Source: Thermoplasmatota archaeon
GTDB taxonomy: Archaea; Thermoplasmatota; E2; DHVEG-1
DNA length: 64,000 bases
Direction: 5' to 3'
NCBI GenBank assembly: GCA_030619765.1
Contig: JAUXAU010000005.1
Location: 1 to 64,000 of the forward strand
The position numbers and the translations under genes are program-made. Position 1 is the stretch's first letter. The number at the start of each line of letters is the position of its first letter. The notes below the pieces were generated by a model, which was not told the DNA's origin, ran no database searches, and saw nothing but the letters and a program-made list of their open reading frames with translations. Positions 3,804 through 37,691 of this stretch are shown in pieces.

Positions 3804-3914
3804 TCAAGGGTCCCTTCTAATATCAGTAATTTGAATAAAAGATGTACGGTTCCTTGCTTCATAATGGTTTGTAGCAATAGCTGACTTATTGGTTCTGGAA
3901 GTCAGCCATTGCTA

Positions 3915-5075
3915 TAGTTCGCAATTATCGAATGGGCTTCATCCATTGCTTGGCTCGCACATTGTTTGTGGGCTTCAACCTTCCATTGGCTCGCATTTTC
4001 TCCTTGGGCTTCACATTTTATGTGGCTCGCAATTTGTCAGTGGGCTTCACATTTTCACTGGCTCGCATTTTTTTATTGGGCTTCAACATTATATTGGCTC
4101 GCACGCTTTCTTTGGGCTTCACCTATGTGATGGCTCGCACATCTCAAATGGGTTTCAATTATCAACTGGCTCGCACGTTGTTTATGGGCTTCAACCTTCC
4201 ACTGGCTCGCATTTCCCTATTGGGCTTCAATCATCAAATGGCTCGCATATATTCGATGGGCTTCACATTCCAACTGGCTCGCATATTGGATATGGTTTTC
4301 AAAGTTTTTATGGCTCGCATAAACCCCATGGGCGTCATAAGTTCACTGGCTCGCATCTATGACATGGGCTTCAACGCTTCTATGGCTCGCACGTTGCAAA
4401 TGGGCTTCATGTTCTTCATGGCTCGCATCTTTTCCATGGTCTTCAAATCTAGAGTGGCTCGCATATCTCGATTGGGCTTCAACTTTCAACTGGCTCGCAT
4501 TTTTCCAATGGGCTTCAACCATCTAATGGCTCGCAGCTTGTCAGTGGGCTTCAATCTTTTCCTGGCTCGCAGTTTTTCAATGGGCTTCAATCTCTCAGTG
4601 GCTCGCATGTCTACCCTGGGCTTCAAACTCCCTATGGCTCGCACTATTACAATGGGCTTCAGTATCCCGATGGCTCGCACTCTCTATATGGGCTTCGGAT
4701 GTTACATGGCTCGCATTCACATCATGGGCTTCAGTCCTTTCCTGGCTCGCATATAGTATTTGGGCTTCAATATCCCATTGGCTCGCATTTCTTCTCTGGG
4801 CTTCAATCTTTATATGGCTCGCATATTTCCAATGGGCTTCAAATTGTACATGGCTCGCATTTTCTTCGTGGGCTTCAAATCCAAGATGGCTCGCACTTTT
4901 GGTTTGGGCTTCAGTTATCAACTGGCTCGCACTATTACGATGGGCTTCAGTATCCCGATGGCTCGCAAATTCCCCCTGGGCTTCATTCTTAGATTGGCTC
5001 GCATTTATTATCTGGGCTTCAACCCCTTATTGGCTCGCACATTTTATTTGGGTTTCAATCTTTTCTTGGCTATTT
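3915..5075. repeat. TIGR-like array 1: alternating 9-nt words TGGGCTTCA / TGGCTCGCA separated by 9-nt variable spacers, 36-bp period, 32 loop words
   Basis: Loop words start at 3933 + 36k for k=0..31 (3933...5049) without phase slip; flanking words degenerate (TAGTTCGCA at 3915, TGGCTATTT at 5067). Confidence 0.97.
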
Positions 5076-5085
5076 TTAACATCAT

Positions 5086-5970
5086 TTAGAAGTTGTATTT
5101 GCCTTCCCAGTCTACAGCATCTCTCCATGTAGTAACGTCTTTGTGTCCTAATGCCTCTTTCACATAGGGTTCTCTGACATCTAATCCTGCCATTTCCCTA
5201 GCACATCCATAATAATGGGCCAGGAAAAGCTTCCTCGTTACTCTGAGTGCCATGTTATGTGCATGCCCTTTTATGAGTTTGGTATCCTCTTTTTTGTATG
5301 GTTTACCGTATTTGGCTTCTAATTCACCTTCCGGGTATTTTCTGTTCAAATATCTTGTTTTAGCATCGTTGTAACATTTTCTATAGATTCCCTTGTTTTG
5401 TTTCATCAGATTATCACTGATTTTCCATGTAAAGGTCAGCAGACGCGGGTTGAACTTCTGATCCTTGTGTCGTTTAGGTGCTTTTCCATCTCCTGTTACA
5501 TCATTGCCTGTATGGCACCATAAACTGGAAGTTGTATGGTATTGTGAACAATCGCCAAATTCTTTTAACAAATTTGCACTGATAACAGGGCCGATGCCTC
5601 TGATTTTTTCCAGAAACTCGGTGTAGACTTTCTCTTGTAACACATACTCGAGCATCCTATTTTTATATTTGTCTTCGATGTTCTCCGATTCATCTGCCAG
5701 ATCCCAGCACATTTGTACATATCTATGTTCATGTTCGGTGATTTCTTTCTTTTCAAGTAAATCATTCCACAGATTGAAAAGTTGCTTGTCTGTATATTTC
5801 TTTTTGAAGTCTCTGTCTTCCTTTTTTTCTTCTACAGCGTCAAAATCTATTCCTTCTACTTTTTTTCTTATGATGTCTCTTATTCGATTTTTGGTGCTTA
5901 TTCTTACTTCTTGCATATCATAGTAGGCACCTGCTACTATCCTGCCTAACATTTTTGTTATATCTGACAT
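5086..5970 (-). CDS. Tas-like / IS110-C-terminal (Transposase_20, Nop-like) protein without recognisable nuclease domain
   Basis: N-terminal helical region (VAGAYYDMQEVRISTKNRIRDIIRKK) then IRGIGPVISANLLKEFGDCSQYHTTSSLWCHTGN...RLLTFTWKISDNLMKQNKGIYRKCYNDAKTRYLNRK...HNMALRVTRKLFLAHYYG, the IS110-type C-terminal pattern; no N-terminal DEDD/RuvC domain; stop codon 11 nt from array 1. Confidence 0.8.
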   Translation of the reverse strand: MSDITKMLGRIVAGAYYDMQEVRISTKNRIRDIIRKKVEGIDFDAVEEKKEDRDFKKKYTDKQLFNLWNDLLEKKEITEHEHRYVQMCWDLADESENIEDKYKNRMLEYVLQEKVYTEFLEKIRGIGPVISANLLKEFGDCSQYHTTSSLWCHTGNDVTGDGKAPKRHKDQKFNPRLLTFTWKISDNLMKQNKGIYRKCYNDAKTRYLNRKYPEGELEAKYGKPYKKEDTKLIKGHAHNMALRVTRKLFLAHYYGCAREMAGLDVREPYVKEALGHKDVTTWRDAVDWEGKYNF

Positions 5971-6140
5971 ATCATATCACTCCCTTTTGGTTTTCAATCT
6001 TGCATTAACTCCCAGGTGTCTCTCTGGTTTTTACGTTACGAATGACTATCATTCTAGGCCAACAACCATACAATCGGAGATGGGATTACACCCCTGAATC
6101 ATACCGCTGCCAGATGCCCATGCCTTATTTAACAAGAGAA

Positions 6141-6302
6141 TCATTTTTTACCCTCTTCATCTAACTTATCAAGGCCGATATTTAAGATAATTCTCAACAA
6201 CTCTGAATTATGTTTATACCTTCCAGAATTCATATAGGCCATAAATCGTTTGTATTGACTTTTTGTCGGTCTGACTATTAAACAATGATCGCTTTCTTCC
6301 AT
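6141..6302 (-). CDS. Small ribbon-helix-helix-like protein (53 aa)
   Basis: Not in ORF track; reads MEESDHCLIVRPTKSQYKRFMAYMNSGRYKHNSELLRIILNIGLDKLDEEGKK*. Confidence 0.55.
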   Translation of the reverse strand: MEESDHCLIVRPTKSQYKRFMAYMNSGRYKHNSELLRIILNIGLDKLDEEGKK

Positions 6303-6353
6303 TTTTCAGTTCTCCTTATTTTTTTATCGTTAAACCACCGGATTTTACCCCGG

Positions 6354-6760
6354 TGGCTTCGCATACCTTTTTTGGACTTCACAATATCAATGGCTCGCAC
6401 ATTTCCCATGGGCGTCAATACCCTACTGGCTCGCATATGTCAAGTGGGGTTCAAATCTGAAATGGCTCGCATATTGGGCATGGGCTTCAAATCTAAATTG
6501 GCTCGCACTATCACAATGGGCTTCAGTATCCCGATGGCTTGCATCTTTTTATTGGCCTTCAACATTTCATTGGCTCGCACTCTCTATATGGGCTTCAGAT
6601 GTTACATGGCTCGCAGATTTTCAATGGGCTTCACTCTTCTATTGGCTCACACATCTCAGATGGACTTCATACACCAATTGGTTCCGCAAGATTTATATGG
6701 ATTTTACATATGCCGTGGCTTGCAGAAGATATATGCATTTTATACCCATTCTGGCGGTAT
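6354..6760. repeat. TIGR-like array 2 (same words as array 1; 9 in-phase loop words plus degenerate end)
   Basis: Loop words start at 6373+36k for k=0..8; after a 10-nt edge word (TGGTTCCGCA) phase shifts +1 (6698, 6734). Confidence 0.93.
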
Positions 6761-6834
6761 GCCCCTTCTTGGCGTTCTTCGTTCCCAAGAACCATTCGGG
6801 AATACACGATAGCAATATTATAAACTGTACAAAT

Positions 6835-6892
6835 GATTAATAAAGGTAACTGTATTATTCATAAAATACATATGGTCATACAATAACAATAG
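6835..6892 (+). repeat. Left arm of 58-bp inverted repeat
   Basis: gattaataaaggtaactgtattattcataaaatacatatggtcatacaataacaatag; reverse complement of 7987-8044 with one mismatch. Confidence 0.95.
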
Positions 6893-6896
6893 GTAG

Positions 6897-7904
6897 ATGA
6901 TAAAAATGGCTAACAAAAAAAATAGAACAAGGGTTGGTGTATTGGGTGATGATTTAGATAAGAGAGAGACTACAAAAAAGATTAATTTTATATTAGAAGG
7001 ACCTAAAGAAACATGGTATACTATACAAGAAATAGTGGATCTTGGACAGGATAAATACGGATTAAACTTTCCTACAAAAGAGACGATATCTCGATATCTA
7101 AACTCTATGATGGACGATAAAAAAGTAGAAGTAAAAAAACCAGAGAAAAAAGGGTTAGCATATAAGTGGAGATTGAAAAAACATTTGTATGTGTATGAAG
7201 ATCTGGTATTCGATTACGATCTCAATGTATTAAACGAATTAAAAGACTATATCACACCTCTCCAAAGAGATATGCATAATATTTTAGTATTTGGTCCAGT
7301 AACCATCTGCAACTTCCCTTTGTATGATTTTAAAGAATGTAGAGAAGAAATTAAAGAAGCAGTGGTTATATTGAAAGATGCTACAGATAAATTAGATGAA
7401 TTATACATAGGACGGATATTGCATCTTGTTACCAATTATATTGATACACTAAACGAAATGAAGGCTCCTCTCTTGGATAAGCAGTTGATTTCTATTTTTA
7501 CTTCTGGGTTAGAAAATAAAGTACCCTTAGACCATAGATTGTGTAAGTGGGATAAACAGATTAATGAATGGATTAGAGAAACTATACCTGCAGATAACGA
7601 GGAGGAAAAGAGACTTGTTGTTAGCAAGGATCTCTCATTAGCTAAACTTCTGAAGAGTGAATATTACCCGTCCAAGGGGGATGATGAGGTTTTGGAACTG
7701 ATAGCCGATTACCATATTGGAAAAAATATCGGTGATTGTTTCCTTCACTTGTATCTTATGTTATCAGATGTCGTAATGATGCCACATCCCATCGTTATCG
7801 TTCGTAGCAATGTGACAGATCGGAAGGATTTAGCAAATTCTTATTCCAAGAGACGTATATTAGCACGAAAAGGTTTGTTAATTGATAAAAAGATTGTGAA
7901 ATGA
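6897..7904 (+). CDS. Hypothetical protein, possible winged-helix N-terminus
   Basis: 335-aa ORF starting 4 nt after the inverted-repeat arm; TIQEIVDLGQDKYGLNFPTKETISRYLNSMMDDKKVEVKKP resembles wHTH. Confidence 0.7.
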   Translation: MIKMANKKNRTRVGVLGDDLDKRETTKKINFILEGPKETWYTIQEIVDLGQDKYGLNFPTKETISRYLNSMMDDKKVEVKKPEKKGLAYKWRLKKHLYVYEDLVFDYDLNVLNELKDYITPLQRDMHNILVFGPVTICNFPLYDFKECREEIKEAVVILKDATDKLDELYIGRILHLVTNYIDTLNEMKAPLLDKQLISIFTSGLENKVPLDHRLCKWDKQINEWIRETIPADNEEEKRLVVSKDLSLAKLLKSEYYPSKGDDEVLELIADYHIGKNIGDCFLHLYLMLSDVVMMPHPIVIVRSNVTDRKDLANSYSKRRILARKGLLIDKKIVK

Positions 7905-7986
7905 GATTATAGCTAATCAGCGGGTTTTTAACCTTGGGTGTATCGGTTTATTAATATCGATAAAATAGAATTGAAATAATTTTTAT

Positions 7987-8044
7987 CTATCGTTATTGTA
8001 TGACCATATGTATTTTATGAATAATACAGTTACCTTTATTAATC
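7987..8044 (-). repeat. Right arm of 58-bp inverted repeat
   Basis: ctatcgttattgtatgaccatatgtattttatgaataatacagttacctttattaatc. Confidence 0.95.
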
Positions 8045-8063
8045 CTTTGTATGATTTTTAAGC

Positions 8064-18517: not shown

Positions 18518-18730
18518 TGCGAGCCAATGTAAGGATGAAGCCCAATGGAAAAGTGCGAGCCATTATGCAGTTGAAGCCCAGTTGAAATATGCGAGCCATA
18601 TAAAGATTGAAGCCCAAGAGTTTCTTGCGTATAGCCAAGATGGCTGTGAAACCCATGGAATTTCTGCGTAGCCAGGATGAATATGAAACCCACTTGGCAC
18701 TTGCGTAAACCAACAAACACATGAAGGCCA
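18518..18730. repeat. TIGR-like array 3, inverted relative to arrays 1 and 2 (TGCGAGCCA / TGAAGCCCA on + strand), ~6 units
   Basis: Edge words at 18518, 18554, 18590, 18626 (12 nt), 18665 (10 nt), 18702 (11 nt); loop words at 18536, 18572, 18608, 18647, 18684, 18722; every intervening spacer is 9 nt. Confidence 0.93.
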
Positions 18731-18806
18731 AAAGATAGTATTGACTAACTTATCAATTTTTAAGTCAGTCAATACTAATATTCAATATCAGATAGGAAAA
18801 TACTGC

Positions 18807-19215: not shown

Positions 19216-19295
19216 TGGGCCCGCCGAACCGTGAACAGACTAACAGGAGAAAAACCAGGTAAAACATTACAGGTGTTTGATGGTTTTGATTTAGC
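19216..19295 (+). repeat. Degenerate att-like direct repeat, copy 1
   Basis: tgggcccgccga (same as tRNA-Pro 3' end in this window) + accgtgaacagactaacaggagaaaaaccaggtaaaaca. Confidence 0.75.
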
Positions 19296-24415: not shown

Positions 24416-24486
24416 AATTTTTATTCCTCCAATCCTGGGAGATATGTAAGTGGTTTTTAAAAATCTAACGTAATTTTTTTTGAATA

Positions 24487-24532
24487 AGTGGGCCCGCCGA
24501 GATTTGAACTCGGGTTACCAGCACCCCAAGCT
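24487..24532. repeat. att direct repeat, left copy (partial tRNA-Pro)
   Basis: agtgggcccgccgagatttgaactcgggttaccagcaccccaagct. Confidence 0.95.
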
Positions 24533-25385
24533 AGATTATAAGGAGAAAATAATCGCTTCTCAGCAAGATTTGGACAGATATATTACACTTAGAGAAATAA
24601 GTGGTGTATGCAATCGTTGGTTGTACGAACTTAAGTTAATACTCAATGGATATCTATCATACACAAATAAAACAATATCTGAAGATAAAACCCTAGAATA
24701 TATCATGGTATTGAAAGATAAGTATTCACCATCTACCTATAGGAAACACGTATACCAAATACGTAAGTTCTTAACACAGCTAAAGATGGAATGGGCTAAT
24801 AACATTATACCACCACCAGAACCGAATTACATACCAAAAAGACTTACAAAGGATGATATAATTAATTCACTAGCCTACTTTAAGGAGCACACATTCTATA
24901 AACAGATAAAAACTATCATATTGCTCGGCTCTACTACAGGTATGAGAGCTGAGGAATTATATCAATTGCAACCAGATGATATTGATTTAGAAAATAGAAT
25001 TGTATACGTTAATCACAATCCAGATAATGGACAAAGCACAAAGACAGGACGGAATAGAATTGCAATATTCAACTTTGAGACAGAAGAGGCATTGCAAGGA
25101 TATCTATCTTATTTCAATAATAATAGTGCTCTAAAGTGCCTATTTAATAAGTATCATCTAGAAAGAATATTTCATAATGCACCTATCAAAGTGAAAGATT
25201 TACGTAAGTTCTTCAGCCAGGAGTGGGACAGACGTGGAGGACCAACATCCATTAAGAAAATCCTTATGGGGCACTCATTGAAAGGTGATGTTGATTTGAT
25301 GCATTATAACGCTCAATCAGAAGATGATTTGAAAAAGATATATGATAAGGTGATGGCCGAGGGAGCAGGGCTGAGGGAAGGGTAG
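24489..25385 (+). CDS. int: SSV-type tyrosine integrase, C-terminal catalytic part
   Basis: GSTTGMRAEELYQL (R), KVKDLRKFFSQEW (R), LMGHSLKGDVDLMHYN (H/Y); frame runs through the att site. Confidence 0.88.
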   Translation, partial: WARRDLNSGYQHPKLDYKEKIIASQQDLDRYITLREISGVCNRWLYELKLILNGYLSYTNKTISEDKTLEYIMVLKDKYSPSTYRKHVYQIRKFLTQLKMEWANNIIPPPEPNYIPKRLTKDDIINSLAYFKEHTFYKQIKTIILLGSTTGMRAEELYQLQPDDIDLENRIVYVNHNPDNGQSTKTGRNRIAIFNFETEEALQGYLSYFNNNSALKCLFNKYHLERIFHNAPIKVKDLRKFFSQEWDRRGGPTSIKKILMGHSLKGDVDLMHYNAQSEDDLKKIYDKVMAEGAGLREG

Positions 25386-37616: not shown

Positions 37617-37662
37617 AGTGGGCCCGCCGAGATTTGAACTCGGGTTACCAGCACCCCAAGCT
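37617..37662. repeat. att direct repeat, right copy (within intact tRNA-Pro)
   Basis: Identical to 24487-24532. Confidence 0.95.
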
Positions 37663-37691
37663 GGAAGGATGCCAAGCTACCCCACGGGCCC
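37619..37691 (-). tRNA. tRNA-Pro(GGG)
   Basis: GGGCCCG acceptor, CCAGC-UUGGGGU-GCUGG anticodon arm, CCGAG-TTCAAAT-CTCGG T arm, CGGGCCC-A. Confidence 0.95.

What the first reader, a model, noticed from the sequence alone, without database searches (positions are those of the whole stretch)
4660..6642. Shared spacer pairs reveal the unit boundary: edge = TGGCTCGCA, loop = TGGGCTTCA
The same A/B pairs recur with different outer neighbours. ctattacaa-loop-gtatcccga (array 1), ctattacga-loop-gtatcccga (array 1 again) and ctatcacaa-loop-gtatcccga (array 2). ctctctata-loop-gatgttaca occurs in arrays 1 and 2. cattgtttg-loop-accttccat vs cgttgttta-loop-accttccac lie within array 1. tttttttat-loop-acattatat (array 1) vs tctttttat-loop-acatttcat (array 2). 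In each case what is conserved is N9-TGGGCTTCA-N9, bounded by TGGCTCGCA, so the inherited unit is edge-A-loop-B-edge.
Basis: seen in the sequence. Interest (0 to 1): 0.85.

Follow-up and report, generated by a model that had tools for sequence, protein, structure and literature searches.

The report
TIGR guide-RNA array, inherited by unit
These archaeal repeats are a TIGR-Tas guide-RNA array, a recently described CRISPR-like system, and comparison with related viruses shows that each pair of short guides across the 'loop' repeat is copied and reshuffled as one module.

Summary
Array 1 (3920-5071) has 32 units of 36 bp, A9-TGGGCTTCA-B9-TGGCTCGCA. Array 2 (6360 to about 6750) and array 3 (minus strand, about 18518-18735) match. 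All four listed spacer pairs recur with changed outer neighbours.

The locus is TIGR-Tas (Faure et al. 2025, PMC12045711). The gene between arrays 1 and 2 encodes a nuclease-less TasA: NCBIfam NF052498, 138 bits against a cut-off of 100; its model matches solved TasR and TasH.

TGGCTCGCA is the edge word: arrays open with half an edge (CGCA) and close with the other half (TGGCT). The proposed test was run on 111 arrays and 1,910 spacers, mostly viral. With an exact shared spacer, only the loop partner was kept in 18 families, only the edge partner in 3 (p=0.0015). In one virus clade the pairs split 42:0, units are reordered, and loop-word variants travel with the unit (89% against 43%) while left-edge variants do not.

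Caveats: without that clade the bias is weak (7:3, p=0.34), hybrid units exist, and no target was found. The unit itself is published; its shuffling is the new part.

The parts
3920..5071 (+). TIGR array 1: 5'-truncated edge CGCA, 32 units of A9-TGGGCTTCA-B9-TGGCTCGCA, ending in the 3'-truncated edge TGGCT followed by ATTTTT
6360..6750 (+). TIGR array 2: 5'-truncated edge CGCA, about 8-9 good units to 6669, then decayed words
18518..18735 (-). TIGR array 3: about 6 units; the promoter-proximal edge words have drifted in length (TGGCTATACGCA, TGGCTACGCA)
5086..5970 (-). tasA, 294 aa solo-Nop TIGR-associated protein without a nuclease domain
   Evidence: NF052498 138 bits against cut-off 100; PDB sequence and fold matches to TasR 9mty and TasH 9w04/21kl; AlphaFold2 pLDDT 88
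3872..3915 (+). stem-loop directly before array 1
   Evidence: fold z -4.6 (structure)
6335..6356 (+). stem-loop directly before array 2
   Evidence: fold z -4.1 (structure)
18736..18777 (-). stem-loop directly before array 3
   Evidence: 17-bp stem
4644..4670 (+). shared unit CTATTACAA-loop-GTATCCCGA (also 4932-4958 and 6508-6534 with one substitution each)
4680..4706 (+). shared unit CTCTCTATA-loop-GATGTTACA (also 6580-6606)

Best explanation
This is a TIGR-TasA locus of an archaeon. The arrays would be transcribed and cut in the middle of each TGGCT|CGCA edge word into 36-nt guide RNAs (4+9+9+9+5 nt: CGCA-A-TGGGCTTCA-B-TGGCT). A TasA dimer would bind each guide and use spacers A and B to bind opposite strands of one 18-bp DNA site (A followed by the reverse complement of B). 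Because A and B work only as a pair, the unit that survives duplication, loss and reshuffling is A-loop-B with breakpoints in the edge words. Shown here: the array anatomy, the TasA identity, the half-edge ends, co-inheritance across the loop and reshuffling of whole units. Inferred from the published TIGR systems: processing, target pairing, and selection on the pair as the reason for the linkage.
For: The 36-bp period with two 9-nt words and two 9-nt spacers matches the TIGR definition (PMC12045711). tasA lies between the arrays. The profile aligns from residue 108 of the 331-aa TasR chain, so the N-terminal nuclease part is missing. Arrays begin with half an edge and end with the complementary half. 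Co-inheritance is 18:3 families over 111 arrays (null for any kept partner about 0.2 pairs) and 42:0 pairs in the L079 virus clade. Flanks of that clade are about 77-97% identical, mostly 82-92%, while units are reordered; the edge link is kept in 10 of 70 cases. Loop-word variants co-travel in 34 of 38 shared units against 43% background; left-edge variants match at background (69% against 68%).
Against: Without the virus clade the bias is only 7:3 families (p=0.34), and within the window 4:1. Counter-examples exist: the L092 1.5-unit duplication, the window a1-25/26 against array 3 case, hybrid units in L135 and L138, and single-spacer replacement between near-identical arrays L092 and L099. 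No RNA data were available. No target was found in about 2 Mb of fetched DNA (both strands counted), in 101 genomes (own and related), or in IMG/VR.
Confidence: 0.92

Rival explanations
1. The linkage is a recombination artefact: the edge word is more uniform than the loop word, so recombination or slippage simply breaks at edges, with no selection on the A-B pair.
For: Edge words are more uniform than loop words: chance that two are identical 0.82 against 0.54 in the window, and 0.59 against 0.44 in the virus clade.
Against: In the clade the uniformity ratio is about 1.3, which would predict a split near 57:43, not 42:0. Both words are short, equal in length and equally frequent.
Confidence: 0.15
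2. The recurrences are chance matches between low-complexity, pyrimidine-rich 9-mers and say nothing about units.
For: Window spacers are strongly biased (T at positions 3-5, few G), and many single-spacer near-matches have unrelated partners.
Against: Shuffles that keep the composition give 0.38 double matches against 6 observed. In the larger set the null is 0.16 against dozens observed. The viral clade shares 38 unit pairs with a mean of 1.2 mismatches in 18 nt.
Confidence: 0.03
3. The repeats encode a repetitive protein (12-residue period) or bind a DNA-binding protein, rather than guide RNAs.
For: The 36-bp period keeps frame, and an ORF of 274 codons runs through array 1.
Against: Variable blocks show no codon-like constraint, register slips of 1-3 bp are common in viral arrays, arrays end at half-edges, and a Tas protein lies next to them in the window and in many of the viral loci.
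Confidence: 0.02

Closest known systems
TIGR-TasA dual-repeat systems (Faure et al. 2025, PMC12045711; e.g. Flavonifractor plautii FpTIGR)
   Same: Two alternating short repeats with 9-nt spacers, half-edge ends, solo-Nop Tas protein beside the arrays, unit length equal to the 36-nt tigRNA
   Different: Long array (32 units against the usual 5-15), three arrays, an archaeal genome with a second TIGR locus, and a hairpin before each array. RNA and targets not shown here
TIGR-TasR / TasH (Thermoproteota LB_CRA_1; Salicola phage CGphi29; PDB 9mty, 9w04, 21kl)
   Same: Homologous Nop core by sequence and fold; same array logic
   Different: No RuvC or HNH nuclease domain here; repeats end in GCA/TCA rather than CCA
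IS110 / IS621 bridge-RNA recombinases
   Same: Distantly related Nop-type RNA-binding core (Pfam PF02371 below its cut-off; fold E about 3e-3)
   Different: No DEDD transposase domain; array of guides rather than one bridge RNA
CRISPR-Cas arrays
   Same: Alternation of repeat and spacer, transcribed guide units
   Different: Two different 9-nt repeats, two 9-nt spacers per guide, no cas genes found among the ORFs examined

Membership tests
TIGR-Tas (dual-repeat, TasA type) | Two distinct alternating 8-12-nt repeats separated by about 9-nt spacers | tested here: met
TIGR-Tas (dual-repeat, TasA type) | Adjacent Nop-domain Tas protein | tested here: met
   NF052498 138 bits over the cut-off of 100; Foldseek matches to TasR and TasH E about 1e-9
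TIGR-Tas (dual-repeat, TasA type) | TasA subtype: no RuvC or HNH domain | tested here: met
   No nuclease domain in Pfam; aligns to TasR only from residue 108 on
TIGR-Tas (dual-repeat, TasA type) | Arrays begin and end with truncated edge repeats | tested here: met
   CGCA at 3920 and 6360, TGGCT at 5067-5071; 41 of 65 related arrays
TIGR-Tas (dual-repeat, TasA type) | Box D (UG) at the start and box C (CCA in TasR) at the end of both repeats | tested here: inconclusive
   Both words start TGG and end CA; the CCA form is not present, and the paper allows divergence
TIGR-Tas (dual-repeat, TasA type) | Processing to 36-nt tigRNAs cut in the edge | not testable with these tools
   Needs RNA; the unit length 4+27+5 = 36 fits
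TIGR-Tas (dual-repeat, TasA type) | A and B pair with opposite strands of one target | tested here: inconclusive
   No A.rc(B) site above decoys
CRISPR-Cas | Single 25-36-nt repeat with similar-sized spacers and cas genes | tested here: not met
IS110 transposon | DEDD transposase domain with bridge RNA | tested here: not met
   Only a sub-threshold C-terminal domain match

The most novel reading that the evidence does not exclude
TIGR arrays evolve by copying, losing and reordering whole tigRNA units between related viruses, with rarer replacement of a single spacer inside a unit. Array content turns over much faster than the flanking genome. This would be a partial answer to the published open question of how TIGR arrays expand and are maintained.
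Probability: 0.55. Interest if true: 0.6.

Novelty: new member of a known kind. Interest (0 to 1): 0.45.

Why it matters
[quoted passage not shown]). Comparing related arrays shows, without any RNA experiment, that the functional guide is also the evolutionary unit, and that viruses reshuffle these units. That gives a genetic handle on how guide repertoires change, and narrows which spacer pairs to use when hunting for natural targets.

Tried and rejected
Target search for A followed by rc(B) with a gap of 0-2: no enrichment over mispaired decoys in about 2 Mb of fetched DNA counted on both strands. For the two most recurrent window pairs, 101 genomes (own and related) gave only 2-mismatch matches; these did not exceed the reversed-pattern control for one pair and were modestly above it for the other, and they were scattered over unrelated genomes with a single one in the own genome, so they were not taken as targets. 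IMG/VR gave 1, 1 and 2 stretches for three exact patterns, chance level. A general leader hairpin before TIGR arrays was tested and rejected: strong in the window, absent in most viral arrays. A codon-like (3-periodic) pattern in spacer substitutions was looked for by eye in the shared units and not seen.

Full report
CHECK. The two words TGGCTCGCA and TGGGCTTCA occur 40 and 35 times in the window, against 0.09 and 0.36 expected. They alternate with 9-nt variable blocks at an exact 36-bp period. Array 1 runs from 3920 to 5071 (32 units), array 2 from 6360 to about 6669 with decayed words to about 6750, and array 3 lies on the minus strand at about 18518-18735. In the window, six unit pairs match on both sides of the loop (0.38 expected from shuffles, at most 3 in 500) and one on both sides of the edge (0.29 expected).

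WHAT IT IS. The anatomy is that of a TIGR array (edge, spacer A, loop, spacer B) as described by Faure et al. 2025 (PMC12045711). The gene between arrays 1 and 2 (5086-5970, minus, 294 aa) passes the curated cut-off of NCBIfam NF052498, TIGR-Tas (138 bits against 100). By sequence it matches the solved TasR and TasH chains. A model with mean pLDDT 88 has TasR and TasH as its best PDB matches (E about 1e-9), ahead of IS110-type recombinases. It aligns to TasR only from residue 108 and has no nuclease domain in Pfam, so it is a TasA. The genome holds a second TIGR locus with different words on contig 16, next to a ParB-like gene, as reported for some TasA loci.

WHICH WORD IS THE EDGE. Arrays begin with the last four bases of TGGCTCGCA and end with its first five. 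In the window these are CGCA at 3920 and 6360 and TGGCT at 5067-5071. Among 65 distinct arrays that open with a loop word, 41 are preceded by CGCA. CGCA + 9 + 9 + 9 + TGGCT is 36 nt, the published tigRNA length.

CO-INHERITANCE. Motif searches of IMG/VR and of one-per-species genomes gave 111 distinct arrays with 1,910 spacers. For every pair of exactly identical spacers I asked whether the loop partner and the edge partner were also alike (at most 2 mismatches). Loop partner only: 46 pairs in 18 families. Edge partner only: 6 pairs in 3 families. Chance expectation for any kept partner: about 0.2 pairs. The sign test over families gives p = 0.0015. Most of the weight comes from one clade of viruses (L079, L082, L133, L135/L140, L138) whose tas loci are about 77-97% identical in the flanks, mostly 82-92%. 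There, 42 discordant pairs keep the loop partner and none the edge partner. Shared units stand in different, sometimes reversed, order, and the edge link is kept for only 10 of 70 shared units. Loop-word variants are identical in 34 of 38 shared units against 43% for other units, while left-edge variants match at background (69% against 68%). Hence the block that moves is A-loop-B and the joins lie in the edge words.

LIMITS. Leaving out that clade, the families stand at 7:3 (p = 0.34), or 12:3 with a looser anchor (p = 0.035); the window alone is 4:1 with a looser anchor. Exceptions are real: a 1.5-unit duplication in L092, hybrid units in L135 and L138, adjacent units sharing only one spacer (L016, L067, L085), and one spacer replaced between otherwise near-identical arrays L092 and L099. 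The greater uniformity of edge words (0.59 against 0.44 in the clade) could bias recombination to edges but not to 42:0.

HOW IT MOST LIKELY WORKS. By the published mechanism, a tigRNA is cut in the middle of flanking edges and spacers A and B bind opposite strands of one site. From the published 3' overhangs I infer the site to be A followed by the reverse complement of B. A unit with a foreign A or B has no target, so selection would keep the pair together; this is inference. TasA has no nuclease, so binding, blocking or bending DNA is the likely effect. No target was found in fetched DNA, in 101 genomes or in IMG/VR, so the role stays open.

NOVELTY. The system and the unit are published; only a handful of held papers mention TIGR arrays and I saw none on array evolution, judging from titles and abstracts apart from the TIGR-Tas paper itself. 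What is added is a genetic demonstration that the tigRNA unit is also the inherited unit, and that related viruses reshuffle such units.

Noticed in passing
24487-24532 and 37617-37662: Perfect 46-bp direct repeat equal to the 3' part of tRNA-Pro (37618-37691, minus), with an integrase gene (24480-25385) starting in the left copy: a 13.2-kb element integrated in tRNA-Pro. The TIGR region lies just outside it; 12-bp pieces of the same sequence recur at 19216 and 23440.
   Followed up: partly
6818-6895 and 7984-8061: 78-nt inverted repeats (91%) flank a 335-aa ORF (6897-7904) of no known family, directly after the decayed end of array 2: transposon-like.
   Followed up: no
3872-3915, 6335-6356, 18736-18777 (minus): A strong stem-loop stands directly before each of the three window arrays but before few viral arrays.
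   Followed up: partly
all fetched arrays: Both A and B spacers are pyrimidine-rich on the transcript strand (C>G in 84% of arrays, T>A in 82%), odd if they were copied from random target DNA, since A and B pair with opposite strands.
   Followed up: no
L092 and L099 arrays: Two near-identical arrays differ by one substitution and by the complete replacement of one A spacer (TTTTGTCAT against GCATCGGCCT).
   Followed up: partly
G000:C16:25413-26033 (L027, L023): Second TIGR-TasA locus in the same archaeal genome, with words TGACTCGCT/TGGTTTTCT and a ParB-like gene directly upstream of tasA.
   Followed up: partly
L013 arrays: A spacer and its rare loop variant (TGTAACCCA-CGGGTTTCA) occur in two arrays with different B spacers: a break on the B side of a loop.
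   Followed up: no
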